Shown here one piece after another: positions 10,549 through 32,177 of a stretch of 62,224 bases of DNA (position 1 is the stretch's first letter; each line of letters begins with the position of its first letter). Below the pieces are notes generated by a model, which saw only the letters and a list, made by a program, of their open reading frames with translations, did not search any database and was not told where the DNA came from. The translations under genes were made by a program, and so were the position numbers. The DNA comes from Pseudomonadota bacterium (GTDB lineage Bacteria > Pseudomonadota > Gammaproteobacteria > Steroidobacterales > Steroidobacteraceae): NCBI GenBank assembly GCA_947454465.1, contig CANGJP010000006.1, positions 1 to 62,224 of the forward strand, given 5' to 3'.

Positions 10549-11949
10549 CTACATATGAATAGCACGACCGAAGGCAGCCAAAGTTGCTTCGTGCATGGAT
10601 TCCGACATCGTAGGATGCGGGAACACGGTAGCAATCAATTGCTCTTCAGTGGCTTCCATAGTCATAGCAATCACAAAGCCCTGAATCATTTCAGTCACTT
10701 CAGCGCCAATCATGTGCACACCGAGAATACGGCCAGTTTTGGCCTCAAACACTGTTTTTACAAATCCATCGGTGTCGCCAGAAGCCAGCGCCTTGCCGTG
10801 ATTCTTGAAGGGATAACGACCAACCTTGATATCATGCCCAGCTTTCTTAGCCTGCGCTTCGGTCATACCCACTGAAGCAATTTGTGGCACAGAGTAAGTA
10901 CAGCCAGGCACAGGTGAGTCCAAGTGCGTTTGCGCAAGACCGGCCAAGTGCTCAATGCAATGAATACCCTCATGACTGGCCTTATGAGCCAGCCAGGGCG
11001 CACCGGCCACATCACCAATAGCATACAGTCCTGTAACATTGGTACGACCGTGCTTATCAGTCACCACATGACCACGATCCAGCTTCACGCCCAGCGCCTC
11101 AAGACCAATGTTTTCAACATTTCCGGAAATACCCACCGCAACAATGGCGTAATCTGCAGTGACTTCTTGATTCTTACCGGCCACTTCAATCTGTAGCTTT
11201 ACGTCCTTAGCTGAACCTTGCAATTTAGTGACTTTAGCGCCGACATGAAACTTGATACCACGCTCTTCGAACGCTTTACGCGCTGCAGCTGAAACCTCTT
11301 CATCTTCCATCGGCACGATGCGGTCTAACGCTTCAACTACTGTCACTTCAGCGCCCAAGGCACGAAAGAAGCTCGCAAACTCGATACCAATCGCACCGGA
11401 ACCAATCACCACCAGTGACTTTGGCATGGCTTTGGGCACTAGCGCTTCACGATAAGACCACACACGATTGCCATCAGGTTGCAAACCAATCGCCGGAATA
11501 GTGCGCGCTCGCGCACCGGTTGCCAGCACCACATGCTTGGCGGCAACCGTGCGTGAACCGCCAGCCTTGAGGGCAACCACCACTTTCGGCGCGGTCGTAC
11601 CTTTTTCAAGCGTGGCGTTACCTTCAATCACTTCAATCTTGTTCTTCTTCATCAAGTATGCAATGCCGGCGTTCAACTGACTGGAGACACCGCGTGAACG
11701 CTTAACGATTTTCTCCAGATCAAAGCTGCGTCCGGTCACCTTCATGCCAAAATCTTCAAGATGATCGAGGTTTTCGTACAGTTCACCAGCTTTGAGCAGC
11801 GCCTTGGTGGGGATGCAACCCCAGTTCAAACACACGCCGCCCAACGCTTCGCGCTCGACAACCGCCGTTTTCATACCCAGCTGAGCGGCACGAATGGCAG
11901 CGACATATCCACCAGGACCTGCACCGATTACAACAACATCGAAATCCAT
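10549..11949 (-). CDS. lpdA: Dihydrolipoyl dehydrogenase (E3)
   Basis: Flavoprotein that reoxidises the lipoyl arm of 2-oxoacid dehydrogenases with NAD. 466 aa, normal length. FAD motif GAGPGG at 9-14, redox disulfide C40/C45 in GGVCLNWGC, NAD-binding GSGAIG, and the C-terminal His-Glu pair around H445 (HPTMSE). No N-terminal lipoyl domain. The E1 and E2 genes that would use it lie 12-16 kb away on the same strand (23.8-28.6 kb); no other E1 or E2 is in the window. AAAGG lies about eight bases before ATG 11949. Confidence 0.95.
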   Translation of the reverse strand: MDFDVVVIGAGPGGYVAAIRAAQLGMKTAVVEREALGGVCLNWGCIPTKALLKAGELYENLDHLEDFGMKVTGRSFDLEKIVKRSRGVSSQLNAGIAYLMKKNKIEVIEGNATLEKGTTAPKVVVALKAGGSRTVAAKHVVLATGARARTIPAIGLQPDGNRVWSYREALVPKAMPKSLVVIGSGAIGIEFASFFRALGAEVTVVEALDRIVPMEDEEVSAAARKAFEERGIKFHVGAKVTKLQGSAKDVKLQIEVAGKNQEVTADYAIVAVGISGNVENIGLEALGVKLDRGHVVTDKHGRTNVTGLYAIGDVAGAPWLAHKASHEGIHCIEHLAGLAQTHLDSPVPGCTYSVPQIASVGMTEAQAKKAGHDIKVGRYPFKNHGKALASGDTDGFVKTVFEAKTGRILGVHMIGAEVTEMIQGFVIAMTMEATEEQLIATVFPHPTMSESMHEATLAAFGRAIHM

Positions 11950-14726: not shown

Positions 14727-15965
14727 ATGAGTCAACCAGAACAAACAAATCAACAGACATCAGGAACGCGCGTCACCGCCTATGCCATGTTCGGCCTGCT
14801 GCTTGTGGCTTATGTCCTGATGTCAGCGGACCGCTATCTCATGAGCGCACTCGGAGTTGCTATCCAGAAGACCCTGTCTTTTTCTGACCAAGAACGCGGC
14901 ACATTAGCTACAATTTTTACTCTAGGCTTGGGCATTGGCGGCATCCCCTCTGGATGGCTAATCGCAAAGTCTTCCAGAAAAACCGTGATGCTTGCCGGCA
15001 TTATCATCTTCTCGGCAGCTACTTATTACCTAACAATTGCTTCCAGCTTCTCTAGCATGTTCGCTTCGCTGGTAATTCAAGGATTTGGCATGGCCATGCT
15101 CGCCACCAGCATGTTCGCGCTGGCGGGTAGCTATTTCAGCAAGAATCGCGTTGCCGCCCTCGGCGCCGTGAACGTATGCTTCGGCCTTGGCGCTGTGGTT
15201 GCCGGCAAAATTAATCCAGTTCTGTTGGCTCATTACGAAGTCTCAATGGGCAAAGAACTCAGCTGGCAGCCCACCATTCAGTCCTATGCCATTTTTGGTG
15301 TGGTACTAGCAATACTCATTGCCTTGGCTGTTCGGCCTTGGTTTAGCGAAACCCGAGCCGTTACCCAACAAAGCGCCGATGTCGGCGGTGCTGATTCGGT
15401 AAAAAATCGCAATACCGCACTGCTGGCCGTAATGAGCGTTTTCTACGGCTTGACGGTCTACGGTTTCATTGGAACCTACGTCTCGTACCTCATCCATGAC
15501 CTGCAATATGATCGCCCCGTTGCCATCAACATGCTGGCTTGGTTCGGCTACGGCTCATTACTTTCTATCTTCGGCGGTATGCTCGGCGACCGGCTTTCAT
15601 CTAAATTGGTCATCATCATGTCTTCATTGGGCGTGGCCGTAACGGGTTACTTCTTATACCTACCCGAACTTGATGCAAACCAGCGCCTTGCCTTGTCTTT
15701 TGCATTCGGCATCTTTGGACCCGCCATTCTGTATACCAACTTGGCCGGCGCCCACATCAAATCCATGCGCCGCAGCCTGTCACGTGTAGGCTCCAGCATG
15801 TTTGTGACCACACTGTATGCAGGTGGCGCCTCCGGCGGCTTCCTAATCAGCTACTTTGCCGGCCAATCCAACTGGATCGACGCGTCACGCATTCAGCTGT
15901 CGCTACTGCCACTACTATGTGCCGTTTTGGCGCTGGGCTTACGTCAAGATCAAATGTCTAAGTAA
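14727..15965 (+). CDS. MFS transporter (GudP/ExuT-like fold), substrate unknown
   Basis: 412 aa, twelve hydrophobic segments, with SADRYLMSALGVAIQ in helix 1 reminiscent of anion:cation symporters of the hexuronate/glucarate family (which carry a D-R pair here) and GMLGDRLSSK in the central loop. Probably imports an organic anion or sugar acid. ATG 14727 preceded by AGAGGA. Followed by a strong terminator and then by the dehydrogenase/TIM-barrel operon, so its substrate may be what that operon degrades. Confidence 0.83.
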   Translation: MSQPEQTNQQTSGTRVTAYAMFGLLLVAYVLMSADRYLMSALGVAIQKTLSFSDQERGTLATIFTLGLGIGGIPSGWLIAKSSRKTVMLAGIIIFSAATYYLTIASSFSSMFASLVIQGFGMAMLATSMFALAGSYFSKNRVAALGAVNVCFGLGAVVAGKINPVLLAHYEVSMGKELSWQPTIQSYAIFGVVLAILIALAVRPWFSETRAVTQQSADVGGADSVKNRNTALLAVMSVFYGLTVYGFIGTYVSYLIHDLQYDRPVAINMLAWFGYGSLLSIFGGMLGDRLSSKLVIIMSSLGVAVTGYFLYLPELDANQRLALSFAFGIFGPAILYTNLAGAHIKSMRRSLSRVGSSMFVTTLYAGGASGGFLISYFAGQSNWIDASRIQLSLLPLLCAVLALGLRQDQMSK

Positions 15966-15990
15966 GCAGCCAAACCTGGCAACTCGCTCA

Positions 15991-16024
15991 AAACACGGGA
16001 ACCCATTGGTTCCCGTGTTTTTTT
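15991..16024 (+). terminator. Rho-independent terminator after the MFS gene
   Basis: A perfect 13-bp stem (15991-16003 with 16008-16020) closes a four-base loop CATT and runs into TTTTTTT. It separates the MFS gene from the downstream operon. Confidence 0.92.
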
Positions 16025-16181: not shown

Positions 16182-17201
16182 ATGAAGTTAGCAATTGCCG
16201 GACTTGGCTGGTGGGGCGGTACCCTAGTTGACTCGGTGGAAAAAAGCGAAGGTTTAAGCTTCGTTGCAGCCTATACCCGGTCTCGCTCTCAGCAAGATCA
16301 AGACATTGCTGCCAAACACAATCTGCGCTTGGCCGACAGCTACGAAGCCATGCTTGCTGACCCAGAAGTCGACGGTGTGGTACTGGCCACCCCTCCAACC
16401 GCACACTGCGAACAAATCGTTGCTGCCGCTGCTGCGGGCAAGCATGTGTTCTGCGAAAAGCCATTCGTCATGTCCAAGGCCGAAGCTGAACGCGCCGTTG
16501 CTGCCGTACGCGCCGCTGGCGTCACCCTTGGTTTGGGCTACAACCGTCGCTTCCACCCTTCATGGGTTGACCTAAAAAACCGCATCAACTCCGGTGAACT
16601 CGGCACCATCCTGCACGTGGAGTGCACCATGTCTGGCCCCAATGGTCTGACCTTGGCGAAAGATGCATGGCGCGGCAGCAGTGCTCAAGCCCCTTGCGGC
16701 GGCCTGTTCCCCATGGGCGTTCACGCTGTGGACGGCCTGATTGATTTGTTTGGTGATATCGAAAGTGTCTTCTGCCACAGCTTCCGTCGCGCCGTACCGA
16801 ACGAAAACGATGACACTACTTCCGTGTTGTTCCGCATGAAGAGCGGCATGTCTGCCTATCTAGGCACCATGATGGCGACCGCAGGTACCTTCCGCTTCCA
16901 AGTGTATGGCTCCAAGGCCATGGCACTGCTGGGCGGCTCGGTACACGTTGCCGGTCAATCTTCTGAACACCGTCGTGCTGGTTTGTTCGGCAGCTATGTC
17001 ATTCAACCCATTAAGGGCGATGCCACGGCGCTTGAAGTACCCATGTTCGACGTAAACCGCGCTGAACTGGAAGCCTTTGCAACTGCCGCCAAAGGCGGGG
17101 CACCTTACCCTGTCACCTTTGCTCAAATGATCAATGGCGTTTCGGCTACCGACGCCATCATTGCTTCTTCTAAGTCCCACAAACTCGAAGTGGTCGCTTA
17201 A
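16182..17201 (+). CDS. Gfo/Idh/MocA-family NAD(P)-dependent dehydrogenase
   Basis: 339 aa from ATG 16182, with GGAGA eight bases upstream; a longer frame upstream is not needed. Rossmann motif GLGWWG (G7, G9, G12), the EKP signature in VFCEKPFVMSK, and the C-terminal alpha/beta domain with catalytic-site H in MGVHAVDGLID. The family oxidises sugars, inositols or sugar acids. First gene of a three-gene operon. Arg codons are almost only CGC/CGT (one CGG seen), a bias typical of highly expressed genes. Substrate unknown. Confidence 0.88.
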   Translation: MKLAIAGLGWWGGTLVDSVEKSEGLSFVAAYTRSRSQQDQDIAAKHNLRLADSYEAMLADPEVDGVVLATPPTAHCEQIVAAAAAGKHVFCEKPFVMSKAEAERAVAAVRAAGVTLGLGYNRRFHPSWVDLKNRINSGELGTILHVECTMSGPNGLTLAKDAWRGSSAQAPCGGLFPMGVHAVDGLIDLFGDIESVFCHSFRRAVPNENDDTTSVLFRMKSGMSAYLGTMMATAGTFRFQVYGSKAMALLGGSVHVAGQSSEHRRAGLFGSYVIQPIKGDATALEVPMFDVNRAELEAFATAAKGGAPYPVTFAQMINGVSATDAIIASSKSHKLEVVA

Positions 17202-17231: not shown

Positions 17232-18431
17232 ATGGATCTCGGTAAATACGGCCACCTGACCTATTCCACCCTCGTTCACCCTGGCGACACTTGGCCAGAA
17301 ATGTGGGAAAGCCTGACCAATTACGTGCCACGCGTGAAAGCTCGCGTATGCCCTGACAAGCCTTTCGGCGTATCGCTGCGTCTCTCGAACGCTTCGGCTG
17401 AACTGTTGGTGAATTCACCTAGTGAACGCGCCAAACTGAAACAGTTCTTAGCTGACAACAACATGTATCTGTACACGGTCAACGCCTTCGTGTTTGGTCC
17501 GTTCAAGAACCAACTCGTGAAAGAAAAAGTGTACGAGCCAGATTGGCGCGGTGAAGAACGCACTCGCTACACCATGAACGTAGCAGACATTCTGGCCGAA
17601 GTTTCTCCTGAGTTTGTAAATCCATCTATCCAAAGTCCGCCGCTGGGTTTCAAACCACGCGTCACCGGCCCTGAAGTCGTTGAAGCCTATGCCGCCAACC
17701 TGCGCCGTTTGGCCGCTCACTTGCACAAACTGCGTGAGCGCACGGGCCGTACCGTCACCTTGGCTGTTGAACCAGAACCGTACTGCTTCTTGGAAACCAC
17801 CGAAGAAACCGTGCACTTCTTCACCAAAGTACTGCGCTCTGAACAGTCCCTCGCTGCTCTAGGTAAAGACCTAGGCGTGAGCAGCGAAGAAGCTCGCGTG
17901 ATTCTGCGTCGTCACGTCGGTACCGTATATGACATTTGCCATCAGGCAGTTGAGTTCGAAGACATCAGCAAGTCACTGCAAAGCCTGGTCGACAACGACA
18001 TTCCTGTATTCAAGCTTCAAGAAGCTGCTGCTGTGCAAGTGCCTGCCGTAACACCCGCTGCGATTGATGAATTGCGTAAGTGGGCCGATACCGTGTACTT
18101 GACACAGACCATTGAAAAGATGGATGGCAAGATCACTCGCTTCTTGAATCTCGAAGACGCGATTGCCGCGTGGGAAAAAGATCCTAATCGCACCCGCGAA
18201 TGGCGCATTCACTTCCACGTGCCTGTGTTCTTGGAAAAGCTGGGCGAAAACATGCGCACGACGCGCTTTGCCATTGCTGAAGCCTTGGCGTTCCACAAAG
18301 CCAACCCACTCAGCGCACAGTTGGAAATCGAAACCTACACTTGGGATGTGTTGCCACAACACCTCAAGACCGGTGACATCGTTGATTACGTGACGATGGA
18401 ACTGGAATGGGTACAGAGCCAGTTCAAGTAA
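17232..18431 (+). CDS. EboE-like TIM-barrel protein (xylose-isomerase-like fold)
   Basis: 399 aa. The opening GHLTYSTLVHPGDTW, the run PDKPFGVSLRLS, then YTVNAFVFGPF and VYEPDWRGEERTRYTMNVADILAE match what I recall of EboE, the TIM-barrel member of the eboABCDEF metabolite-traffic cluster. AP-endonuclease/xylose-isomerase-like metal residues are plausible in AVEPEPY, VYDICHQ and HFHVP. No other ebo gene is in the window. GGAG precedes ATG 17232; it lies 30 bases after the dehydrogenase and 28 before the next gene. Arg codons are exclusively CGC/CGT in the parts I checked, suggesting strong expression. It may be an isomerase or hydrolase; function unproven. Confidence 0.72.
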   Translation: MDLGKYGHLTYSTLVHPGDTWPEMWESLTNYVPRVKARVCPDKPFGVSLRLSNASAELLVNSPSERAKLKQFLADNNMYLYTVNAFVFGPFKNQLVKEKVYEPDWRGEERTRYTMNVADILAEVSPEFVNPSIQSPPLGFKPRVTGPEVVEAYAANLRRLAAHLHKLRERTGRTVTLAVEPEPYCFLETTEETVHFFTKVLRSEQSLAALGKDLGVSSEEARVILRRHVGTVYDICHQAVEFEDISKSLQSLVDNDIPVFKLQEAAAVQVPAVTPAAIDELRKWADTVYLTQTIEKMDGKITRFLNLEDAIAAWEKDPNRTREWRIHFHVPVFLEKLGENMRTTRFAIAEALAFHKANPLSAQLEIETYTWDVLPQHLKTGDIVDYVTMELEWVQSQFK

Positions 18432-18459: not shown

Positions 18460-19341
18460 ATGAAAATCGGATTTATTGGTCTCGGTCGCATGGGTTCAGG
18501 TATGGCCCAGCGATTGTTAGCAGCAAACTTCAAACTTGCTGTATTCGATCCTGACGTCAAACAAAGCGCACGCCTTGCTGAAGCCGGTGCCGAGGTCGCC
18601 AATAGCCTTAGTCACCTAGCTTCCATGTGCGATGTAGTCATCAGCATGTTGCCGAGCGATGAAATATTGCGCTCGGCCACTCTTGATGCCGATGGCTTAG
18701 TCGCCAACCTGCGCAAAGGTGCGATCCACATGATCAGTGGAACACACGGCGTTCCTGCACTGGCTGAACTGATTGAAGCTCACAAAGCCGCAGGTCAAAC
18801 TCTGGTGGCCTGCCATGTACTAGGTCGCCCTGACCTCGCGGCATCAGGCAAGCTGGGGCTTGTACCCGGTGGCCCTAAAGCTGCAATTGATTCGCTACGT
18901 CCAGTTTTTGCCGTGATCGGCGAACGCGTATTCGAAGCCGGCGAAAACCCGCTATCAGCAACCGCCATCAAAATTGCCAACAACTTCGTTCTAGGTTGCG
19001 CCATTGAAGCCATTGGCGAAGGCCATGCATTGGTGCGCAAGTATGATGTCGATCCCCTGGTGTTCCACCAAGTATTGGTCGGCGGTCTATTTAATTGCAC
19101 GGCCTACAATGCGTATGGTGACTTGATTGCCAACAATGATTGGGGACGCTTAGGCGCCTCTGCAGTCATTGGCTTGAAAGATGCTAATTTGTCACTAGAA
19201 GCCGCAGCTCCCGTTGGCGTTCAACTGCCTAGTGTCGCCATTTGGAAAAAAGGCTTGGAAAACGCGATTGCACGCGGCGAAGCCAATCTCGATTGGTCTG
19301 TCATGGCACGCGAGCAATTCCGAGCCAGCGGTCTCGAGTAA
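18460..19341 (+). CDS. Beta-hydroxyacid dehydrogenase-family oxidoreductase (HIBADH-like)
   Basis: 293 aa. N-terminal NAD(P) motif GLGRMGSGMA, catalytic Lys in AIKIANNFVLG (K-x-x-N-N), and helical C-terminal domain. The usual DAPVSGG substrate loop is replaced by CHVLGRPDLAASGKL, which marks a subgroup different from classical 3-hydroxyisobutyrate or tartronate-semialdehyde reductases. Third gene of the operon with the Gfo/Idh/MocA and EboE-like genes; GCGGAG precedes ATG 18460. Likely interconverts a beta-hydroxyacid and its semialdehyde. Confidence 0.87.
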   Translation: MKIGFIGLGRMGSGMAQRLLAANFKLAVFDPDVKQSARLAEAGAEVANSLSHLASMCDVVISMLPSDEILRSATLDADGLVANLRKGAIHMISGTHGVPALAELIEAHKAAGQTLVACHVLGRPDLAASGKLGLVPGGPKAAIDSLRPVFAVIGERVFEAGENPLSATAIKIANNFVLGCAIEAIGEGHALVRKYDVDPLVFHQVLVGGLFNCTAYNAYGDLIANNDWGRLGASAVIGLKDANLSLEAAAPVGVQLPSVAIWKKGLENAIARGEANLDWSVMAREQFRASGLE

Positions 19342-19440: not shown

Positions 19441-20712
19441 TTAGTAGTTAGTAGCGGACGTCAGATCTTTGCAGTTGTATGGCTCGTAACTGGCTTGCGA
19501 AATCTGCACTACGTCCTGTCCTTTGAAGGATTCGGTGAGGTACGAAGCATCGTCACCCACCCAACTACGGGTCAGCGTCTTACCGCCATTACTCAGCGTA
19601 AAGCGCTCGACCACATGCAAACGGTCACTGTGCTTGATACCCATATTCAAATAACCCGGCAAGAAGCCCACGGTGTCGACCACCAAGGTATCGCCTTCCC
19701 ATTTACCGATCGAATGCCCCGCTCTACTTGGCTTAATGTCTTTCGGATGGCTCGCCATATTCAGATAAACGGTGCGAGAAATATCCATGAAACCATAATC
19801 AATCTTGAGTGTGTCCTTGGTTTGCTGAATACGATTAACATGCTGATCAGTTGTCCAATCACTAAAAATACTGGTCGCCATGCAATTCTGGCTGGGAGAG
19901 TCTTCTCGCTTAAATCCGGCAGAGGCCGCTAAGCCCGCTGCAGATTGCTTGTATTGAGAGCCGCCACCCATACCTTCAGCACCACCTGGCGCACCAGCAG
20001 GTGGTCCCATACCTTCAGGCGCACCGCCTATACCCATTCCCAACGCAGCACCCGCAGGTGCACCCATGCCCGCAGAGGCATTGGGTGCTTGATGTGGCGC
20101 AACCGTAACAAAATTAGACGGAGCTTTAGTGAAATCCCCATAGTTAACCACTTCAGTTGAGGCCAAGGCTGAGGCTGCCGGCGGGGTACTACCTGACTTA
20201 ATAGCCGCCAAAACCGCAGCAGAATTTGTACCGTTATTCACGGCATTTAGTTTCTGCACAGCACCCCAATTACCCGCGAAATTAGGCTTACCGTCTGAGG
20301 TGCGTTCCTCACGCTTTACTTCAGCTTTATCTGCAGCAGCTAATTGTTCATAGCGCTCAATGGTTCGCCCATCTTGGAAGGTGAGCGTTTCAACATAGCA
20401 GCCCCGTGGCTCTTTTCGAGCTGGTGCAGCAACAATATAAAGCTGCGTGCCGGGCGAAAACATATCTTTAGTCCAACCTGACCGATTCAATAGTGCCGAG
20501 GCACGCATCTCACAACGCCAAGCATCAGTGCCACCCGCAATGTTTTTAACATTCATGTATACATAGGAATGGGGATTAACGTATTCCATCTTGGTGATCA
20601 CACCAGCAATCTTGATAGTTTTTGATTCATCAAATTGACCAGACGAACCATGATGGGCATGGGCCACCATAGAGGTCAAAGCGAGCAATAGAAGTAGGGT
20701 TTGTTTTTGCAT
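19441..20712 (-). CDS. Secreted DUF6152-type protein with Gly/Met-rich segment
   Basis: 423 aa from ATG 20712, signal peptide ending MVAHAHH. The first 110 mature residues match the DUF6152 pattern (HHGSSGQFDESKTIKIAG, then KMEYVNPHSYVYMNV). A low-complexity Gly/Ala/Pro/Met segment with four GMG units follows (about 19957-20078), then a C-terminal domain with FSDWTTDQHVNRIQQ and a WEGDTLVVDTVGF repeat typical of proteins that accompany DUF6152. GGAG lies eight bases upstream. Function unknown; acts in the periplasm. It is the last gene before the convergent operon. Confidence 0.7.
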   Translation of the reverse strand: MQKQTLLLLLALTSMVAHAHHGSSGQFDESKTIKIAGVITKMEYVNPHSYVYMNVKNIAGGTDAWRCEMRASALLNRSGWTKDMFSPGTQLYIVAAPARKEPRGCYVETLTFQDGRTIERYEQLAAADKAEVKREERTSDGKPNFAGNWGAVQKLNAVNNGTNSAAVLAAIKSGSTPPAASALASTEVVNYGDFTKAPSNFVTVAPHQAPNASAGMGAPAGAALGMGIGGAPEGMGPPAGAPGGAEGMGGGSQYKQSAAGLAASAGFKREDSPSQNCMATSIFSDWTTDQHVNRIQQTKDTLKIDYGFMDISRTVYLNMASHPKDIKPSRAGHSIGKWEGDTLVVDTVGFLPGYLNMGIKHSDRLHVVERFTLSNGGKTLTRSWVGDDASYLTESFKGQDVVQISQASYEPYNCKDLTSATNY

Positions 20713-22373: not shown

Positions 22374-22542
22374 GAGCCACCCCCAAATTAATAATTGAAC
22401 GACATCGGCAAAACAAAAGACCGATCAACCAGACTGATGAACAAGAATACAGTCTCAGCGTACATTCTGCACAATAAAGTCATCGCTACCGAACACTTAA
22501 GTGTGCCCAATGCCGCGAGCAAACAACCTATCTTCAAAGATC

Positions 22543-22573
22543 AAAAAAACATGCCCGCGCAAGGCGGGCATGT
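22543..22573 (-). terminator. Rho-independent terminator of the second tandem-SnoaL gene
   Basis: ACATGCCCGC pairs with GCGGGCATGT (22549-22558 with 22564-22573) around a five-base loop, followed on the minus strand by TTTTTTT. Confidence 0.9.
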
Positions 22574-23835: not shown

Positions 23836-25149
23836 TTAGACCAGCAAGGCAACAGGATTCTCAATCGCCTTCTTGAAGGCTTCGAGCAATTGCGCCCCTA
23901 CCGCACCATCAATGACACGGTGGTCACAGGACAAGGTCACCATCATTTGGCTAGCAAAGCGCACGCTGCCATCCGCTGCCTCGACAGGCACTCGTGAAGC
24001 TGCACCTACAGCAAGGATCGCGGCTTGAGGCGGATTAATAATTGCTGAGAACTCATGCACGCCGTACATGCCTAGGTTAGAAATAGCGATCGCACCACCT
24101 GTGTATTCAGCAGGTTGTAACTTACGCGCACGCGCACGCGCGACCACTGACTTCATTTCACGTGACACGGCAGACAATGACTTACCTTCGACAGCACGCA
24201 ACACAGGAGTAATCAATCCACCTTCAATGGCAACTGCCACGCCGATGTCAGCCTGACTGAAGCGTAGAATGCGATCTTCAGCCCACACTGCATTGGCCTC
24301 AGGCACACGCACCATGGCTGAAGCAAGTGCTTTGATGATGAAATCCGTCACCGACAGTTTCAAATCTGAACCGCAAGCCACTGCGGCCTGATTGGCATCA
24401 GCACGCAAAGTATTCAACGCATCGAGCATCACTGGCACTGACAAATAGAAGTGCGGCACAGTTTGCTTAGACTCTAATAAGCGACGCGCGATGGTCTTGC
24501 GCATGGTATCAACCGGCACAACCTCATGTGGCGTATTGGCATACTGCGCGATAATGCTTTCAGCAGATGCGCCCGTAGCTAATGCACGCTGCCCACCACC
24601 TGATGCAGCAGCAGCTTCAATGTCGCGGGCCAAAATACGGCCGCGCGGACCCGTGCCTTTCACTTGCTGCAAATTCACTTGCTTTTGAGCAGCCAAGCGA
24701 CGAGCCAATGGCGTAACGTTTGTGCCATCTGACAAACGCGCCGGACCAAAATTCTGAGTCGGTGTCGCCACTGGATACAATGGATCGCGTGCCACGGGTG
24801 GGACAACGGGCGCCGCAGCAACAACCGGCACGGCTACAGGAGCCGGTGCGGGAGCAGCAACGGGGGCCGGTGCCGCGACAGGAGCAGGAGTTGCAGTACT
24901 TTGTGAAGCGGCATCACCAGACTCAGCCACTACAGCCACAACCGTACCCACTGGAACGGTTTTACCTTTCTCAACGTGAATTGCCACCAATTTACCGGCA
25001 ACAGTAGCTGTGATCTCCATCGACGATTTGTCGGTTTCGATTTCAAACAGCACATCACCAGGCTGGACCATGTCGCCCACTGCCTTCGCCCAGACCGCAA
25101 GGGTACCTTCAGCCACTGTTTCGCCCAATTGGGGCATCAAAATATCCAT
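23836..25149 (-). CDS. Dihydrolipoamide acyltransferase, E2 of a 2-oxoacid dehydrogenase
   Basis: 437 aa. Lipoyl domain with lipoylated K41 in ETDKSSMEI; Ala/Pro linker about 83-120; peripheral-subunit-binding domain about 145-180 (TPLARRLAAQ...GTGPRGRILARDIEA); catalytic domain ending SCDHRVIDGA with active H410. One lipoyl domain only, as in acetoin and branched-chain complexes. Transfers the acyl group made by E1 to CoA. Last gene of the operon E1alpha-E1beta-aldehyde dehydrogenase-E2; E3 is the gene at 10549. The substrate cannot be told from the sequence. Confidence 0.93.
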   Translation of the reverse strand: MDILMPQLGETVAEGTLAVWAKAVGDMVQPGDVLFEIETDKSSMEITATVAGKLVAIHVEKGKTVPVGTVVAVVAESGDAASQSTATPAPVAAPAPVAAPAPAPVAVPVVAAAPVVPPVARDPLYPVATPTQNFGPARLSDGTNVTPLARRLAAQKQVNLQQVKGTGPRGRILARDIEAAAASGGGQRALATGASAESIIAQYANTPHEVVPVDTMRKTIARRLLESKQTVPHFYLSVPVMLDALNTLRADANQAAVACGSDLKLSVTDFIIKALASAMVRVPEANAVWAEDRILRFSQADIGVAVAIEGGLITPVLRAVEGKSLSAVSREMKSVVARARARKLQPAEYTGGAIAISNLGMYGVHEFSAIINPPQAAILAVGAASRVPVEAADGSVRFASQMMVTLSCDHRVIDGAVGAQLLEAFKKAIENPVALLV

Positions 25150-25165
25150 CGTACCTACCTACCAG

Positions 25166-26623
25166 TTACCAGTTTACGGACACGTATTGTGTCTCTAGAA
25201 ATTCCAAGAGCCCTTCATGACCACCTTCACGACCGAGCCCACTCTGCTTGACTCCGCCAAACGGCGCCGCAGGGTCGGAAACCAACCCACGATTAAGCCC
25301 CACCATACCGGCCTCTAACTGCTCAGCAACACGCAGACCCTTACCAATGTCACGTGTATAGATGTAAGAAGCCAAACCAAATTCGCTGGAATTTGCCTGA
25401 GAAACCACTTCATCCTCTGAGGTGAACTTTTGTATTGCAGCCACAGGACCAAAAATTTCTTCGGTCACAACGGCCGAATTTGCTGGCACATTAGTCAATA
25501 CGGTAGGCGGATAGAAATAACCGATGCCTTCTGAGGCACGACCACCCGTCAGAACTGTTGCACCACGCGATACCGCATCATCCACCAAAGAAGCGACTTT
25601 TTTCAGAGTCGATGCATTGACCAACGGCCCAACCGTCACGCCCTCATCCAGACCATTGCCCACCTTCAATGCAGCCATGCGTGCGGCCATTTTCGCAGCG
25701 AACTCATCGTGCACTTTACTCTGCACATAAAAACGGTTTGCGGCGGTGCAAGCCTCACCCATATTGCGCATCTTGGCGATCATCGCGCCTTCTACGGCCG
25801 CATCCACATCCGCATCATCAAAAACAATAAATGGTGCATTGCCGCCCAACTCCATTGCCGGACGGACGACGTTATGAGCTGCGGATTTGAGAATATCTCG
25901 CCCTACTTCGGTTGAACCGGTAAATGACACGACGCGCACCCGCATATCGGCGAGCATGGCATCAACCACCGCGCCCGATGCACGAGAAGGCACCACATTC
26001 ACCACACCAGCAGGCACACCAGCTTTTTCTAGAATTGGCATCAAAGCCAGCATGGTCAGAGGAGTGGCCGACGCCGGCTTAAGCACCACTGTGCATCCAG
26101 CAGCTAGCGCAGGACCAATCTTGCGAGTAGCCATCGCTGCAGGAAAATTCCAAGGCGTAATCAACAACGCAACACCAGCAGGCTTATGCGAGACCAAAAT
26201 TCGCGCACCTGAAGCGGGCGCATGAGAATATTGACCGTTAGACCTCACCGCTTCTTCGGCATTCCAGCGGAAAAACTCAGCCGCGTATGCAACCTCACCG
26301 CGTGCATCCACCAAGGACTTACCGTTTTCGAGGGTGATAATTCGCGCTAAGCGCTCACCCTCTTGCACCATGAGTTCATAAGCACGACGAAGAATCTCTC
26401 CCCGAGCACGCGGCGTTAACGCCGCCCAAGGCTTGAACGCTTCGGACGCTGCATCGACCGCAGCAAGACAATCAGCGACCGTAGCACTGGCAACTGTAGC
26501 AACCGTCTTTTGCGTTGCTGGGTCCTCAACATCGAAGCGCGCCGCGTCTGACGCTGTACGCCATGCCCCACCGATCCAAAGATCGGTGGGCACACCAGCA
26601 AGAATGTCGTGCTGAACCGTCAT
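25166..26623 (-). CDS. NAD(P)-dependent aldehyde dehydrogenase (succinate-semialdehyde type)
   Basis: 485 aa from ATG 26623, which lies four bases after the E1beta stop. The catalytic Glu in MELGGNAPFIV and catalytic Cys in GEACTAANRFYV are intact, with the NAD motif FTGSTEVGRDI. Closest in pattern to GabD-like semialdehyde dehydrogenases. Its position between E1beta and E2 is unusual and suggests it makes or consumes the acid that the complex handles, for example by oxidising the semialdehyde made by one of the two HIBADH-like enzymes (inference). Confidence 0.9.
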   Translation of the reverse strand: MTVQHDILAGVPTDLWIGGAWRTASDAARFDVEDPATQKTVATVASATVADCLAAVDAASEAFKPWAALTPRARGEILRRAYELMVQEGERLARIITLENGKSLVDARGEVAYAAEFFRWNAEEAVRSNGQYSHAPASGARILVSHKPAGVALLITPWNFPAAMATRKIGPALAAGCTVVLKPASATPLTMLALMPILEKAGVPAGVVNVVPSRASGAVVDAMLADMRVRVVSFTGSTEVGRDILKSAAHNVVRPAMELGGNAPFIVFDDADVDAAVEGAMIAKMRNMGEACTAANRFYVQSKVHDEFAAKMAARMAALKVGNGLDEGVTVGPLVNASTLKKVASLVDDAVSRGATVLTGGRASEGIGYFYPPTVLTNVPANSAVVTEEIFGPVAAIQKFTSEDEVVSQANSSEFGLASYIYTRDIGKGLRVAEQLEAGMVGLNRGLVSDPAAPFGGVKQSGLGREGGHEGLLEFLETQYVSVNW

Positions 26624-26627
26624 CGAA

Positions 26628-27602
26628 TTAGGCTGACATCGTGCGACGTACAGTCTCAACGATACGATCTACTGACGGAATCAGTAAGTCTTCCAACTCA
26701 GCCGGTGGCAATGGAATGTGCGGAGTAGTGATACGTACAGGCGGACCATCCAGATCATAGAACGCTTCATCAGCCACAATCGACACCACTTCAGCACCCC
26801 AACCGCACAGCCGTGGATTTTCTTCCACGGTGAACAGACGGCCAGTGCGTGAAACTGATTCCAGAATCGTACGGGTATCCAACGGCAGCAAGGAGCGCAA
26901 ATCGATCACTTCGCAATCGATACCACTTTCAGCCTTCAAACGCTCAGCGGCAGCCAAAGCACGTGGCACCATCAATGCCAAAGCCAGAATGGTGGCATCT
27001 TTACCAGGACGCAGTGTTTTAGCGGTACCGATGGTATCGATGATTTCACCATCAGGCACTTCGCCTTTCACGGCATACAGCGACTTGTGCTCAAGGAAGA
27101 TCACTGGATCAGGATCGCGCACGGAGGCGGCCAACAGACCGACCACATCCACTGGACTTGAAGGCACAACCACCTTTAAGCCTGGAATCATCATGCACCA
27201 GTTTTCTACGCTCTGGCAGTGCTGCGCACCGAAGCGCGCAGAACCATTGGCCAAACGAATCACCAGCGGGCACTTCACTTGACCATTGGTCATGTAACGG
27301 CTCTTCGGAAATTCGTTAGCAAAGAAGTCCCAACATACAGCAGCAAAGTCAGCAAACATGAGGTCAACGATTGGGATCAACCCAGTCATGGCCGCACCCA
27401 TGGCAGCACCCATGAACGCTTGTTCAGAAATAGGTGTATCTTTAACGCGCTTAGGACCGAACTTTTCGTACAGACCTACAGTGGCTTTGAATACACCACC
27501 TGCTTTCGCAACGTCTTCACCGAGCAGCACAACATTAGGGTCGCGCTCCATCTCCTGTGCAATAGCACGTGCTACCGCATCACGATAAGTTAATTCCGCC
27601 AT
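26628..27602 (-). CDS. 2-oxoacid dehydrogenase E1 component, beta subunit
   Basis: 324 aa from ATG 27602 (MAELTYRDAVARAIAQEM). Conserved GEDVAKAGGVFKAT, PISEQAFMGAAMGAAMTG and LEHKSLY segments mark the transketolase-like pyrimidine-binding domain. Works with the alpha subunit to decarboxylate a 2-oxoacid with thiamine diphosphate. It overlaps the end of the alpha gene by 13 bases, consistent with translational coupling. Resembles AcoB and PdhB; the substrate is not determined. Confidence 0.93.
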   Translation of the reverse strand: MAELTYRDAVARAIAQEMERDPNVVLLGEDVAKAGGVFKATVGLYEKFGPKRVKDTPISEQAFMGAAMGAAMTGLIPIVDLMFADFAAVCWDFFANEFPKSRYMTNGQVKCPLVIRLANGSARFGAQHCQSVENWCMMIPGLKVVVPSSPVDVVGLLAASVRDPDPVIFLEHKSLYAVKGEVPDGEIIDTIGTAKTLRPGKDATILALALMVPRALAAAERLKAESGIDCEVIDLRSLLPLDTRTILESVSRTGRLFTVEENPRLCGWGAEVVSIVADEAFYDLDGPPVRITTPHIPLPPAELEDLLIPSVDRIVETVRRTMSA

Positions 27603-28594
27603 GCGCAACCCCCATCAGCATAAACATCAGTAAACATGAGATCAGCCGGTGGCGGCGGCGCCGCCTTGCAAGCCACTTCGGCTGCATCGACTTCCTTCTT
27701 AACTTCTTGCTCAATTGCATCGAGCACCGAGGCCTTAACACCCGCTGAAAGCAGGCGCGCACGGTAAGTTTTTACCGGATCGCTCTTCTTCCATTCTTCG
27801 AGTTCGCCTTCAGGGCGATACTTAGCGGGGTCGGCACGGCTGTGACCGGAATGACGATAAGTCAAACATTCAATCAGTGATGGACCTTCGCCAGCACGAG
27901 CACGAGCATAGGCTTTTTGTGCAGTCTGATAAACCACATCCGCATCGTTACCATCAATCAAAATACGCTCTAAGCCGTAGGCTGAAGCACGGTCTGCAGC
28001 CGGTTGAGGCACTGCAGTCACGTCTTTAATTGGGGTGTATTCCATGTACAAGTTGTTTTCGCACACAAACACCACAGGCAACTTCCAGATCACTGCAAAG
28101 TTGAGCGCCTCATGGAAGGCACCGATGTTGGTGGTACCGTCACCAAAGAAACAGGTGGTGACATCTTGTGCACCCTGATACTGCGCACGCCAAGCTGAAC
28201 CGCAAGCGATACACAGGTGAGCACCGATGATGGCGTAGGAACCCATGACCCCATGTTCGACAGAGGTCAGGTGCATCGAACCGCCCTTACCACGCATCAA
28301 GCCATTGTCACGCGACATCAATTCACCTAGAACCTTTTCAACGGACACGCCGCGAGCCAAGGTATGGGCGTGACCACGATAAGTACAGAAGGTCAAATCA
28401 CCCGGCTTCATGGCGGTGGCGAAACCCGCCGCAATGGCCTCCTGCCCTAATGACAGGTGGCTGGTACCCTTGACCAGATTTTGCAGGAACAAATCGAATG
28501 CACGCTGCTCCGCTTCACGCAGGCGGTACTGAGAGCGATACATCTCCAATCGCGTAGCTTCGGCAATATCAACTGCCGGGGTTTTCTTACTCAT
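27590..28594 (-). CDS. 2-oxoacid dehydrogenase E1 component, alpha subunit (thiamine-binding)
   Basis: 334 aa. The thiamine-diphosphate motif GDG...NN is at residues 151-181 (GDGTTNIGAFHEALNFA to CENN). RGHAHTLARG and GKGGSMHLT near 73-108 are the substrate and cofactor residues of acetoin/pyruvate E1alpha. First gene of the operon. Could act on acetoin, pyruvate or a longer 2-oxoacid; the presence of dehydrogenases around it makes an oxoacid from a catabolic pathway more likely than acetoin. Confidence 0.93.
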   Translation of the reverse strand: MSKKTPAVDIAEATRLEMYRSQYRLREAEQRAFDLFLQNLVKGTSHLSLGQEAIAAGFATAMKPGDLTFCTYRGHAHTLARGVSVEKVLGELMSRDNGLMRGKGGSMHLTSVEHGVMGSYAIIGAHLCIACGSAWRAQYQGAQDVTTCFFGDGTTNIGAFHEALNFAVIWKLPVVFVCENNLYMEYTPIKDVTAVPQPAADRASAYGLERILIDGNDADVVYQTAQKAYARARAGEGPSLIECLTYRHSGHSRADPAKYRPEGELEEWKKSDPVKTYRARLLSAGVKASVLDAIEQEVKKEVDAAEVACKAAPPPPADLMFTDVYADGGCAWRN

Positions 28595-29769: not shown

Positions 29770-31023
29770 ATGAAATACAATCGCCCTTACTCAACGGCTG
29801 CTTATGGCACCATGGCCAAGGACTGGGAAGGCGGAGTGAACTATGAGCGTCTGCGCCGTGAACGATTGGCCCGCGCTCAAAATGCCATCAAATCAGCCGG
29901 CTTGGGCGGCGTAATCTGCTTCAACTTTGACAACATCCGTTACGTCACTGGCACCAATATCGGAGAGTGGGCCCGTGACAAGTTCATGCGTTACACGCTT
30001 TGCCCTGCTGAAGGCCCTCCTTATCTGTGGGACCCTGCAGCCCCTTCCAAGCGCATTGCTTCTCCTTGGATTGCTGACAACGTTGCCGCACCCATTTCTA
30101 CAATGCAAGGTGCACTGCGTCCTTCAATGAAGGTCGAAAGCACGTTTGCTAAGCAAATTAAGAAAGCCCTGGTTCATTACGGCATCGAAAAGCAACCTAT
30201 TGGTATCGACATCATGGAATTACCCATGCTGCGCGCCCTCGAAGCTGAAGGCATCGAAGTAGTCGACGGTCAACAAGCTCTGCTTGACGCCCGCGAAATC
30301 AAAACCTGGGATGAAATTGAACTGCTGAAAGTTGCTGCCGCAATGGTTGACGCCACCTATGTGGACATCATCAAGGCCGTGCGTCCAGGTACTCGTGAAA
30401 ATGAATTGGTTGCCATTGCTCATGATCGCCTGTTCCGTTTAGGTTCAGAGCGCGTTGAGTGCATTAACTCAGTGTCCGGTCCTCGCGGCCGCCCTCACTC
30501 ACATACTTTTTCCGATCGCATCATTCAACCCGGCGACATGGTGTTCCTCGACATCATGCACTCGTTCAATGGTTACCGTACCTGTTACTACCGCACCTTC
30601 ATTTGCGGTGAACCTAATAAGCACCAGATTGAAGCCTATGAAAAGGCGTCTAAGTGGATCAGTGCTTCTATCGATATGATTCGTCCGGGCGTCACGCCGG
30701 ATGAAGTAGCACAAGTCTGGCCCGATGCTCAGGAATTCGGTTATCGCGATGAAGCCGAAGCCTTCTTGCTGCAATACGGTCACGGCGTTGGTCTGTCGCT
30801 GTGGGAACGCCCTATTTTCTCGAAGCGTTACAAGGGTCAGACCGAGCCGCTCAAGGAAGGCATGGTGTTCGCGCTTGAAACTTGGTGTGGCGCTGAAGAC
30901 GGCTCAGGCGCAGCCCGCATTGAAGAAGAAGTGGTGGTCACCAAGAACGGTTGTGAAATCATCACCTGCTTCCCATCTGATCGCTTGATTTCCTGCGGCC
31001 TGCCTGGCTGCGAGGTCTTCTAA
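29770..31023 (+). CDS. M24-family creatinase-fold protein (DddP/Xaa-Pro peptidase-like) with altered metal site
   Basis: 417 aa: N-terminal creatinase domain, then a pita-bread catalytic domain. Of the five usual metal ligands, D261 (VFLDIM), H338 (GHGVGLSLWE), E370 (MVFALETW) and E385 (ARIEEEVV) are present, but the second Asp is C272 in GYRTCYYRTF (codon TGT at 30583-30585). This changes the dinuclear centre. DMSP lyase DddP belongs to this family, so a lyase or C-N hydrolase is possible; peptidase activity is doubtful. Arg codons are almost all CGC/CGT, suggesting high expression. Eight bases upstream of the CobW gene. Confidence 0.82.
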   Translation: MKYNRPYSTAAYGTMAKDWEGGVNYERLRRERLARAQNAIKSAGLGGVICFNFDNIRYVTGTNIGEWARDKFMRYTLCPAEGPPYLWDPAAPSKRIASPWIADNVAAPISTMQGALRPSMKVESTFAKQIKKALVHYGIEKQPIGIDIMELPMLRALEAEGIEVVDGQQALLDAREIKTWDEIELLKVAAAMVDATYVDIIKAVRPGTRENELVAIAHDRLFRLGSERVECINSVSGPRGRPHSHTFSDRIIQPGDMVFLDIMHSFNGYRTCYYRTFICGEPNKHQIEAYEKASKWISASIDMIRPGVTPDEVAQVWPDAQEFGYRDEAEAFLLQYGHGVGLSLWERPIFSKRYKGQTEPLKEGMVFALETWCGAEDGSGAARIEEEVVVTKNGCEIITCFPSDRLISCGLPGCEVF

Positions 31024-31031: not shown

Positions 31032-32177
31032 ATGACATCTACAACCCCCACAGCCGATCAGCGGGTGCCGGTCACCTTGCTGACCGGCTTTTTGGGCAGC
31101 GGTAAAACAACGCTGTTAAGCCAAGCCATCAACCACCCCGAACTTGCACGTACGGTGGTGGTTATCAATGAGTTCGGTGACGTCAGCTTAGACCATTCAT
31201 TGGTTGCTGCCAGCAATGACAACATCGTTGTACTGGAAAATGGCTGCATGTGTTGTACGGTACGTGGCGATCTGCTCGCTACCCTCACCGAACTGCATGC
31301 CGCGCGCGCGGCCAATGAAATCCCCCAGTTTGATCAGGTCATCATCGAAACATCTGGCCTGGCCGATCCTGCGCCGGTTATGCAAGCACTGCTCTCAGAA
31401 CCGGCACTGGAAAGCCAATACCGACTAGCGCGCATCATCGCCACCTTCGATGCGGTGAATGGCCCAAGCACATTGACTCGTCATGATGAGTCGGTGCGAC
31501 AAATCGCGATGGCAGACCATATCCTGATCACCAAGCTCGACTTAGTAAAAGACGTAGATGCCAGCACCGCATTAGAACGTCATACCGTTTCACTACAAGC
31601 CGTCAATCCAGCTGCAGTCATTGAACAAAATCCAAGTGACAGCGCTGAGATCGTGAAGCTCCTCCGTCTACAAGGCTTTGATCCAAAGCATAGCCCTGAA
31701 GAAGCACTGAAGTGGCTCAACGCACAAGCTTATCTGCACGCACCTCACGAACATGATTGCAGCGAACATGGCTGCGAAGAACATGCGCTGCACCATCACC
31801 TACAAGACATCGCCTCGTTCTGCTTCGTCAGAGAAGAACCGATTGCCCGTGAAGCATTGCACCTACTGCTGACTTCGCTGGAAAACAATCTGGGCAGCAA
31901 TCTACTGCGTGTCAAAGGACTCATCAACATTGCCGAAGAACCGGGCCGGCCGGTGGTCGTGCAAGGCGCACAGCATCTGTTGCACAACCTGACCTGGCTT
32001 AATAGTTGGCCGGATGCCGATCACCGCACCCGAATTGTGTTCATCGCCCAAGGCATCGCACGGGATGCAGTTGTGGAAATGATTGAATTATTAGAACGGG
32101 TCGCATCACGAACCGCAAAAGCTCGTCGTGCCGCGCCGCAGTCGCCAACCAAACCAACTCAGAACATCACACTGTAA
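31032..32177 (+). CDS. CobW/COG0523 GTPase, putative metallochaperone
   Basis: 381 aa. Walker A GFLGSGKTTLL (19-29), metal-binding C72-x-C74-C75 in GCMCCTVRGD, and a His/Cys-rich stretch around 235-262 (HEHDCSEHGCEEHALHHH). COG0523 proteins deliver Zn, Co or Fe to a client enzyme with GTP hydrolysis. It follows the M24 gene by eight bases with no terminator, so the M24 protein is a natural candidate client. It has only a weak ribosome-binding site, which suggests coupling to the upstream gene. Confidence 0.88.
   Translation: MTSTTPTADQRVPVTLLTGFLGSGKTTLLSQAINHPELARTVVVINEFGDVSLDHSLVAASNDNIVVLENGCMCCTVRGDLLATLTELHAARAANEIPQFDQVIIETSGLADPAPVMQALLSEPALESQYRLARIIATFDAVNGPSTLTRHDESVRQIAMADHILITKLDLVKDVDASTALERHTVSLQAVNPAAVIEQNPSDSAEIVKLLRLQGFDPKHSPEEALKWLNAQAYLHAPHEHDCSEHGCEEHALHHHLQDIASFCFVREEPIAREALHLLLTSLENNLGSNLLRVKGLINIAEEPGRPVVVQGAQHLLHNLTWLNSWPDADHRTRIVFIAQGIARDAVVEMIELLERVASRTAKARRAAPQSPTKPTQNITL

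What the first reader, a model, noticed from the sequence alone, without database searches (positions are those of the whole stretch)
17232..18431. EboE-like TIM barrel outside an ebo cluster
The motifs GHLTYSTLVHPGDTW and PDKPFG match the EboE family as I recall it, known from metabolite-export clusters with eboA-D and F. Here it is in a tight operon with a Gfo/Idh/MocA dehydrogenase and an HIBADH-like enzyme. This suggests the fold works as a sugar-acid isomerase or hydrolase and may explain what EboE does.
Basis: partly seen in the sequence, partly recalled or inferred. Interest (0 to 1): 0.56.

Follow-up and report, generated by a model that had tools for sequence, protein, structure and literature searches.

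The report
EboE sister enzyme in catabolic island
A gene that databases call the export-linked protein EboE is a sister enzyme with the same catalytic core but a changed pocket, placed among sugar-breakdown genes in several bacterial phyla, which offers a testable handle on what the uncharacterised EboE family does.

Summary
In detail: window 17232-18431 encodes a full EboE-family protein (NF035939, 402.9 bits, cut-off 250) in a three-gene operon, Gfo/Idh/MocA - EboE-like - HIBADH-like. It is not a displaced ebo gene. With 57 relatives it lies opposite 13 ebo-cluster EboEs across one fully supported branch, and no ebo partner was found in the DNA held for 81 such loci. The core residues are shared, but S12-L14-Q134 replaces C12-N14-S134. 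In 29 further loci the signature agreed with presence or absence of ebo partners each time (the one S-L-Q locus had been sampled before). Enriched neighbours are Gfo, HIBADH, DoxX and a metal-site variant of M24 peptidases; zinc dehydrogenases and sugar importers stand in for Gfo in actinobacteria. The predicted fold is xylose-isomerase-like (Z 24). Best reading: a metal-dependent enzyme isomerising or eliminating a keto-cyclitol or keto-sugar made by the partner dehydrogenase. In 41 ebo loci the cyclitol-forming gene is EboD (23) or an inositol-phosphate-synthase homologue (17), never both, which favours cyclitols. Substrate and reaction remain undetermined; 'sugar-acid isomerase' is possible, 'hydrolase' unsupported.

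The parts
17232..18431 (+). EboE-family TIM-barrel protein of the non-ebo subfamily (399 aa)
   Evidence: NF035939 402.9 bits; tree; model pLDDT 91.2
16182..17201 (+). Gfo/Idh/MocA family dehydrogenase (339 aa from the ATG at 16182), partner in operon
   Evidence: (best NCBIfam inositol 2-dehydrogenase 119.9 bits, below cut-off 355); within 3 kb of the EboE-like gene in 39 of 81 loci
18460..19341 (+). HIBADH/tartronate-semialdehyde-reductase-like dehydrogenase (293 aa), partner in operon
   Evidence: TIGR01505 135.8 bits, below cut-off 340.75; HIBADH family within 3 kb in 43 of 81 loci
15990..16021 (+). intrinsic-terminator-like hairpin (14 pairs, T tail) between the MFS gene and the operon
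   Evidence: the scan as a whole found no excess over shuffles (5 found, 6.5 expected)
14727..15965 (+). MFS transporter, neighbouring unit; possible uptake for the pathway
   Evidence: MFS_1; a homologue in only 2 of 55 other non-actinobacterial loci
29770..31023 (+). M24-family variant with Tyr-Tyr (CYYRT) where canonical M24 enzymes have a metal Asp; recurrent partner of the EboE-like gene in two phyla
   Evidence: (46-51% identity to the M24 protein in 22 of 25 actinobacterial loci)
31032..32177 (+). CobW-type metallochaperone GTPase next to the M24 gene
   Evidence: M24 and CobW neighbours also in L009, L011, L022, L038, L047
28683..29633 (-). second HIBADH-like dehydrogenase
26628..28594 (-). 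2-oxoacid dehydrogenase E1 beta and alpha subunits
   Evidence: NF006667 343.6 bits over cut-off 321; TIGR03182 323.6 below cut-off 393.85; E1 is only weakly enriched near EboE-like genes
25166..26659 (-). aldehyde dehydrogenase, succinate-semialdehyde-dehydrogenase-like
   Evidence: TIGR01780 577 bits, below cut-off 646
23836..25149 (-). probable E2 acyltransferase of the same complex
   Evidence: sequence, lipoyl and catalytic motifs as recalled; no family search run on it
10549..11949 (-). probable E3 dihydrolipoamide dehydrogenase
   Evidence: sequence, GGVCLNWGCIPTK-type motif as recalled; no family search run on it

Best explanation
The gene encodes a separate, catabolic subfamily of the EboE family. 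Shown: family membership; a clade apart from ebo-cluster EboE with a switched pocket signature and an unchanged core; a predicted xylose-isomerase-like barrel; an operon with two NAD(P)-type dehydrogenases; a recurrent, multi-phylum neighbourhood without ebo genes. Inferred: a divalent metal is held by E180 (or E182), D234, H327 and E365 at the mouth of the barrel. The Gfo/Idh/MocA enzyme (in actinobacteria a zinc alcohol dehydrogenase whose nearest model is scyllo-inosose dehydrogenase) oxidises one hydroxyl of an imported cyclitol or sugar to a ketone. The EboE-like enzyme then moves a proton next to that ketone through a metal-bound enediolate, and so isomerises, epimerises or dehydrates/eliminates the keto-cyclitol or keto-sugar. 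HIBADH-like enzymes handle a later short semialdehyde or hydroxy acid, and a 2-oxoacid dehydrogenase complex may carry the carbon into central metabolism. My split of confidence: family membership 0.97; separate subfamily 0.93; catabolic enzyme working on the ketone made by the partner dehydrogenase 0.6; substrate a cyclitol rather than an open or glycosidic sugar 0.35.
For: NF035939 over the full length. Tree of 71 rows: 58 non-ebo rows and 13 ebo-cluster rows on opposite sides of one branch, SH-aLRT 100. No EboA, B, C, D or F homologue (blastp E 1e-10) in the DNA held for 81 of 81 loci, against at least two in 8 of 8 ebo loci; no tblastn hit (E 1e-15) in 80 of 80 loci with eight ebo-cluster queries, MIPS and the second barrel included; no EboA in 8 of 8 genomes holding this subfamily, EboA in 5 of 5 genomes or records with an ebo cluster. 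Partner enrichment, within 3 kb against 3-8 kb away: Gfo 39 against 3 loci, HIBADH 43 against 6, DoxX 20 against 1, M24 22 against 6, HTH-cupin 16 against 1. Presence/absence in 59 relatives: Gfo orthologue in 6 of 6 with and 1 of 53 without the EboE-like gene; M24 in 5 of 6 and 3 of 53. Actinobacterial neighbours include an RbsA/RbsC-type importer and Peripla_BP_4 proteins and an IolM-like zinc dehydrogenase (216.8 bits, below cut-off 450). Model pLDDT 91.2, pTM 0.91; best matches L-ketose 3-epimerase Z 24.0, rmsd 2.3 over 255 residues, and UlaE first and 2-hydroxy-3-keto-glucal hydratase AtHYD fifth in Foldseek. Core E180, E182, D234, H237, K261, Q263, H327, H329 and E367 in 29 of 29 further rows, E365 in 26 of 29 and Asp in 3. 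In 41 ebo loci a cyclitol-forming gene (EboD in 23, MIPS-type in 17, both in 0) in 40.
Against: No partner reaches the cut-off of a cyclitol-specific family: Gfo 119.9 of 355 for IolG, zinc ADH 216.8 of 450 for IolM, and in a second locus (L084) the IolM and threonine-dehydrogenase models tie at 178 bits. The model cannot tell epimerase, isomerase, dehydratase and hydratase apart: 824 of 999 chains score Z 8 or more. Which residue of strand 7 is the metal ligand is uncertain: hhalign put that strand at 259-266 (K261/Q263), not at H327/H329. Several supposed pathway genes are hardly or not enriched near the gene (within 3 kb against 3-8 kb): E1 10 against 8, E2 5 against 8, zinc ADH 25 against 16, CobW 6 against 4, the RbsA-type importer 7 against 26 (it lies further out). 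Gfo is within 3 kb in only 39 of 81 loci; MFS homologues are in 2 of 55 other non-actinobacterial loci; the Paraburkholderia/Caballeronia loci lack Gfo, HIBADH and M24 nearby, so the pathway is not uniform. G040 keeps a Gfo-M24 pair without an EboE-like gene. The pocket switch may mean that the substrate differs from that of ebo EboE.
Confidence: 0.55

Rival explanations
1. 3-ketoglycoside route: the Gfo enzyme oxidises C3 of a glycoside or anhydrosugar and the EboE-like barrel eliminates the aglycone or hydrates the resulting 2-hydroxy-3-keto-glucal, as in the levoglucosan (LgdA/LgdB) and AtHYD pathways.
For: Foldseek ranks 5 and 6 are AtHYD 8ro4; a Gfo/Idh/MocA gene beside a xylose-isomerase-like barrel is the arrangement I recall for that pathway; the four-enzyme levoglucosan route (oxidation, elimination, hydration, reduction) is the title of PMC7676230 (search listing and start of abstract only).
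Against: The Gfo partner is far below the levoglucosan dehydrogenase cut-off (73.9 of 650 bits). No glycosidase and no second barrel was recognised among the neighbour-cluster representatives that I scanned (many small clusters were not scanned). Actinobacterial loci use a zinc ADH instead of Gfo.
Confidence: 0.22
2. Open-chain sugar-acid isomerase: works like hydroxypyruvate isomerase (Hyi) or 2-oxotetronate isomerase (OtnI), paired with a reductase of the tartronate-semialdehyde/threonate dehydrogenase type.
For: The HIBADH-like partner's best NCBIfam match is tartronate semialdehyde reductase, 135.8 bits; the Hyi-GlxR and OtnI-LtnD pairings are known from the literature (recalled).
Against: No sequence match of the barrel to hydroxypyruvate isomerase TIGR03234 at E 0.1 or better, while the second barrel of a Streptomyces ebo cluster does match it weakly (50.3 bits, below cut-off 353). 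The HIBADH partner is below the reductase cut-off of 340.75. It does not explain the Gfo step or the sugar importers.
Confidence: 0.15
3. An ordinary EboE moved away from its cluster, doing the ebo job (export-linked prenyl-cyclitol metabolism).
For: Same equivalog model and same catalytic core. Split ebo clusters and, in Planctomycetes, unclustered ebo genes are reported in PMC5133447 (section 12 read).
Against: Separate clade, pocket switch, no ebo partner in 81 of 81 loci, no EboA in 8 of 8 genomes, and a conserved neighbourhood of its own.
Confidence: 0.04

Closest known systems
EboE of ebo/EDB clusters (NF035939; Npun_F5235 of Nostoc punctiforme)
   Same: Full-length homology (28-44% identity to eight ebo-cluster proteins), same core residues, both match the same curated model
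   Different: Separate clade; C12-N14-S134 there, S12-L14-Q134 here; ebo partners there, catabolic-type partners here
Xylose-isomerase-like superfamily (ketose 3-epimerases TmLK3E and UlaE, IolI, AtHYD)
   Same: Predicted fold, Z 22-24 over about 250-280 residues for the 50 best entries; D234-x-x-H237 and an H-x-H pair like the usual metal-site motifs (recalled)
   Different: Only 9-14% identity, over 100 residues longer than the 3-epimerases, below the Pfam PF01261 gathering score
Levoglucosan/3-ketoglucoside pathway (LgdA, LgdB1, LgdB2; AtHYD)
   Same: Gfo/Idh/MocA dehydrogenase next to a xylose-isomerase-like barrel (their arrangement as recalled)
   Different: The dehydrogenase is not a levoglucosan dehydrogenase by NCBIfam; no second barrel of that type seen among the neighbours scanned
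Thermotoga-type inositol route (IolG, IolM, IolN, IolO; recalled)
   Same: Gfo enzyme nearest to IolG, actinobacterial zinc ADH nearest to IolM; an epimerase barrel, IolO, as the analogous step (recalled)
   Different: All matches are below the equivalog cut-offs; the only NCBIfam model the barrel reaches is EboE; no direct comparison with IolO was made

Membership tests
EboE (NF035939) | Match over the curated cut-off of 250 bits along the whole profile | tested here: met
   402.9 bits, profile 1-379 of 379
EboE (NF035939) | Core residues shared with ebo-cluster EboE | tested here: met
   39 columns invariant over 12 non-ebo and 11 ebo rows of A2
ebo-cluster EboE | Gene lies with eboA, B, C, D or F | tested here: not met
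   None found around the window gene or in the DNA held for the 80 other loci; no EboA in the genome. The rest of the genome was searched for EboA only, not for B, C, D or F
ebo-cluster EboE | Falls in the clade of ebo-cluster proteins | tested here: not met
   Single split, SH-aLRT 100, 58 against 13 rows (quick tree; the program flags long branches and odd composition on the ebo side)
ebo-cluster EboE | Role in export or prenyl-cyclitol biosynthesis | not testable with these tools
   Needs mutants and metabolite profiles
Xylose-isomerase-like TIM barrels (PF01261) | Fold | tested here: met
   Z 24.0 to 5h1w, rmsd 2.3 over 255 residues
Xylose-isomerase-like TIM barrels (PF01261) | Pfam gathering score 31.1 | tested here: not met
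   23.7 bits
Xylose-isomerase-like TIM barrels (PF01261) | Glu-Asp-His-Glu metal site | tested here: inconclusive
   Candidate residues invariant or nearly so, but residue mapping by hhalign is weak and ambiguous about the His
Hydroxypyruvate isomerase (TIGR03234) | Match to the equivalog model | tested here: not met
   Not listed at E up to 0.1
IolG, for the Gfo partner | TIGR04380 cut-off 355 | tested here: not met
   119.9 bits
Levoglucosan dehydrogenase, for the Gfo partner | NF052479 cut-off 650 | tested here: not met
   73.9 bits
DddP DMSP lyase, for the M24 partner | NF043017 cut-off 600 | tested here: not met
   132.3 bits; in the alignment to its best PDB match the second metal Asp is replaced by Tyr

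The most novel reading that the evidence does not exclude
An undescribed catabolic pathway, spread over Pseudomonadota, Acidobacteriota and Actinomycetota, breaks down a cyclitol-type compound by a ketone-forming dehydrogenase, an EboE-type barrel and an M24-type enzyme whose metal site has been altered (Asp to Tyr). The ebo clusters use the sister barrel in the making of a related cyclitol whose ring is closed either by EboD or by an inositol-phosphate-synthase homologue. One family would then do the same ring chemistry in both directions, and the substrate of the catabolic branch would reveal the long-sought ebo metabolite class.
Probability: 0.15. Interest if true: 0.75.

Novelty: new variant of a known kind. 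Interest (0 to 1): 0.5.

Why it matters
The papers I saw report no reaction for any EboE, although the ebo cluster occurs in many phyla and in some algal plastids (PMC5133447, PMC9235831; passages and one section). A sister subfamily inside what looks like a growth-supporting pathway can be approached by growth assays, and the shared core and the sharp pocket switch say which residues to test. Practically, the 'metabolite traffic protein EboE' model labels a second subfamily whose neighbourhoods show no ebo genes; positions 12, 14 and 134 separate the two in the rows examined. The alternation of EboD and an inositol-phosphate-synthase homologue narrows the ebo product to a cyclitol class.

Tried and rejected
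Displaced ebo gene: rejected by tree, signature and neighbours. Known-structure relatives by sequence: phmmer found one chance-level hit (E 0.57) and the profile search none up to E 10. Mapping the metal ligands by hhalign to PF01261 proteins: the first attempt chose some wrong reading frames; the second, still with some poor rows, gave only probability 51 and E 0.00015 for residues 61-266 and is used as weak evidence only. MFS as first gene of the operon: rejected because of the hairpin at 15990-16021. DMSP lyase, ectoine hydrolase or peptidase for the M24 partner: all far below cut-off. Mycosporine/gadusol as substrate: one paper search returned nothing; kept as speculation only. Levoglucosan and 3-ketoglucoside pathway: kept as a rival. 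One paper search for the 3-ketoglucoside arrangement and one for IolM/IolN/IolO gave no useful paper.

Limits of the samples. The 80 loci are the best 80 of 565 confirmed hits (itself a capped list) to the window protein, so more distant non-ebo members were not seen. Their flanks are uneven (3.4-17 kb held), so absence of ebo partners means absence from the DNA held. For the tree, 22 of 93 rows were dropped by hand, mostly near-copies, partial rows or rows with unsure ends, and L061 beforehand as too short. L097 has no annotation and was counted as ebo because EboB, C and F homologues lie beside it. From the centres G457 and G456 (already sampled) and two sub-cut-off fragments in G736 were left out. 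ORFs were called mechanically and some true genes were hidden by overlapping ORFs, so partner counts are lower bounds. Neighbour HMMs were built from these same loci. The 41 ebo loci are not 41 independent events. The 25 'actinobacterial' loci include L080, labelled Marinovum but nested among actinobacteria in the tree.

Full report
What is there. The ORF at 17232-18431 is real and full length. It matches the NCBIfam equivalog 'metabolite traffic protein EboE' with 402.9 bits against a cut-off of 250. Six ebo-cluster EboEs checked alongside score 409.9-473.7, and the ebo-type loci score 360-475, so the model does not separate the two kinds. The gene lies 30 nt after a Gfo/Idh/MocA dehydrogenase (16182-17201, ATG start with GGAG upstream) and 28 nt before an HIBADH-like dehydrogenase (18460-19341). 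A 14-pair terminator-like hairpin at 15990-16021 separates the MFS gene from this operon (the region has no excess of such sites over shuffles).

Two subfamilies. A scan of genome contigs gave 565 relatives, of which the best 80 were kept. In a tree of 71 rows the 58 non-ebo and 13 ebo rows lie on opposite sides of one branch with SH-aLRT 100 (a quick tree, with long branches and odd composition on the ebo side flagged by the program). The non-ebo side includes Pseudomonadota, Acidobacteriota and Actinomycetota. In the DNA held for 81 non-ebo loci, window included, no EboA, B, C, D or F homologue was found at E 1e-10, while 8 of 8 ebo loci had at least two. EboA was absent from 8 of 8 genomes holding the non-ebo type and present in 5 of 5 genomes or records with an ebo cluster.

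Core kept, pocket switched. Columns common to both sides include H16, N84, D104, R110, E180, E182, D234, H237, K261, Q263, H327, H329, E365 and E367. Twenty positions are conserved in at least 90% of the non-ebo rows and found in at most one ebo row; eight of them have a single residue on the ebo side: S12/C, L14/N, A85/G, K92/H, Q134/S and V232/C are 58 of 58 against 13 of 13; A265/S is 56 of 58 and N306/D 53 of 58 against 13 of 13. On the model these mostly lie at or just after strand ends on the side where such enzymes bind substrate (strand limits; the side is inference). I then took 29 loci from genomes drawn from the phylum of G457 (Actinomycetota) and the order of G456 (that of Paraburkholderia). 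All 28 with C12-N14-S134 had at least two ebo partners; the one with S12-L14-Q134 had none and instead had Gfo, HIBADH, DoxX and E1 nearby. That one locus, L197, is the contig already seen as L049, so the fresh test bears on the ebo side only. Positions 85, 92, 232, 265 and 306 did not hold up as diagnostic there; 12, 14 and 134 did.

Neighbourhood. Within 3 kb, against 3-8 kb away, the 81 loci hold Gfo in 39 against 3, HIBADH in 43 against 6, DoxX in 20 against 1, M24 in 22 against 6, HTH-cupin regulator in 16 against 1, glyoxalase in 16 against 6, MetE-like in 11 against 6, zinc ADH in 25 against 16, E1 in 10 against 8, CobW in 6 against 4, E2 in 5 against 8 and the RbsA-type importer in 7 against 26 (446 kb against 589 kb of sequence). 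So Gfo, HIBADH, DoxX, M24 and the regulator are clearly linked; the 2-oxoacid dehydrogenase genes are at best weakly so, and the importer lies further out. None of the 25 actinobacterial loci has a homologue of the window Gfo. They carry instead a zinc ADH whose best model is scyllo-inosose 3-dehydrogenase IolM in L065 (216.8 bits, cut-off 450) and a tie of IolM and threonine dehydrogenase in L084, an RbsA/RbsC-type importer and a Peripla_BP_4 protein, and an M24 gene directly upstream (0-89 nt) of the EboE-like gene in 15 of 25. Paraburkholderia and Caballeronia loci have a sugar-type ABC importer, a Dabb and a BKACE protein instead. In 59 relatives the window's Gfo has an orthologue (E 1e-60) in 6 of 6 genomes with and 1 of 53 without the EboE-like gene, and the M24 (E 1e-80) in 5 of 6 and 3 of 53 (Fisher p 1.6e-7 and 6.4e-5, not corrected for relatedness, thresholds chosen by me). 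The window itself carries M24, CobW, a second HIBADH, E1 subunits and an aldehyde dehydrogenase at 25-32 kb. In L009 the EboE-like, HIBADH, CobW, M24 and second HIBADH genes are contiguous, in L011 likewise with one small ORF between (cluster representatives named). The window M24 is 46-51% identical to the M24 of 22 of 25 actinobacterial loci. In 30 aligned rows the place of the second metal Asp of M24 enzymes is taken by Tyr: Y273 and Y274 are in at least 95% of rows and CYYRTF is in all eight of the commonest variants printed, while D261, H338, E370 and the Glu pair at 385-386 are kept (the M24 ligand set is recalled).

Structure. AlphaFold2 on 59 aligned sequences gave pLDDT 91.2 and pTM 0.91. 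Best VIA-align match: Thermotoga L-ketose 3-epimerase, Z 24.0, rmsd 2.3 over 255 residues; xylose isomerases and other ketose 3-epimerases are within 2 Z units. Foldseek ranks UlaE first and AtHYD, a 2-hydroxy-3-keto-glucal hydratase, fifth. This fixes the superfamily, not the reaction. My ligand assignment (E180 or E182, D234, H327, E365) rests on motif spacing and is contradicted in part by a weak hhalign result that places strand 7 at 259-266.

What the ebo side adds. In 41 ebo loci an EboD-type cyclase is present in 23 and an inositol-phosphate-synthase homologue in 17, never both, and one locus (L170) has neither; homologues of the second, smaller xylose-isomerase barrel of L095 are found only in the loci without EboD. 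Two of the synthase homologues were checked and have both Pfam domains of myo-inositol-1-phosphate synthase far above cut-off, though neither is near the cut-off of the NCBIfam mycothiol-type model. L091, an EboD locus, has a different gene annotated as sugar phosphate isomerase/epimerase next to its cluster. In PMC5133447 I read section 12 in full and passages found by term: EboE is placed in the xylose-isomerase-like superfamily with no activity inferable, an actinobacterial fusion of EboA with another xylose-isomerase-like protein is mentioned, some ebo clusters are split or, in Planctomycetes, unclustered, and the word inositol does not occur. In PMC6282210 (passages) the five single ebo deletions made, eboE among them, abolish scytonemin and leave the monomer in the cytoplasm. 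In PMC9235831 (passages) the reactions of EboA-E are called not investigated in detail. In the listings of searches and the passages I read, I saw no paper describing this non-ebo subfamily, its operon or the EboD/inositol-phosphate-synthase alternation; most subscription papers are not held.

Conclusion. Established: an EboE-family protein of a distinct non-ebo subfamily in a catabolic-looking operon. Likely: a metal enzyme that rearranges a ketone produced by the partner dehydrogenase. Open: substrate and reaction type.

Noticed in passing
L095, L096, L097, L169, L171-L183 against L090-L094, L098, L099, L102-L104, L184-L196: In ebo clusters the EboD cyclase and an inositol-3-phosphate-synthase homologue are mutually exclusive (23 and 17 of 41 loci, both 0, neither 1), and homologues of the second xylose-isomerase barrel of L095 occur only in loci without EboD.
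   Followed up: yes
window 29770-31023; clusters c4 and c23: M24-family proteins near EboE-like genes have Tyr-Tyr (CYYRTF) instead of the second metal Asp of M24 enzymes, conserved across phyla.
   Followed up: partly
L198 6269-8587: A Gfo and M24 pair related to the window's (50% and 39% identity) stands together in a genome without an EboE-like gene, beside a gene that by eye looks like a sodium-solute symporter.
   Followed up: partly
NCBIfam NF035939: The equivalog model names both subfamilies 'metabolite traffic protein EboE'; scores overlap (window 402.9; ebo-type loci 360-475).
   Followed up: yes
L024, L034, L037, L040, L046 and others (cluster c9): MetE-like (Meth_synt_2) genes, several of them divergent from the EboE-like gene, occur in 11 of 81 loci within 3 kb, none of which has M24 within 3 kb; role unknown.
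   Followed up: no
window 33779-36857: Two sulfatase genes in tandem downstream of the island.
   Followed up: no
G000 contig C29 5387-8670: Two more xylose-isomerase-like (PF01261) genes close together in the same genome.
   Followed up: no
window 19441-23687: A DUF6152 protein and a SnoaL-domain protein with a neighbouring paralogue (same cluster) lie between the operon and the 2-oxoacid dehydrogenase genes; function unknown.
   Followed up: no
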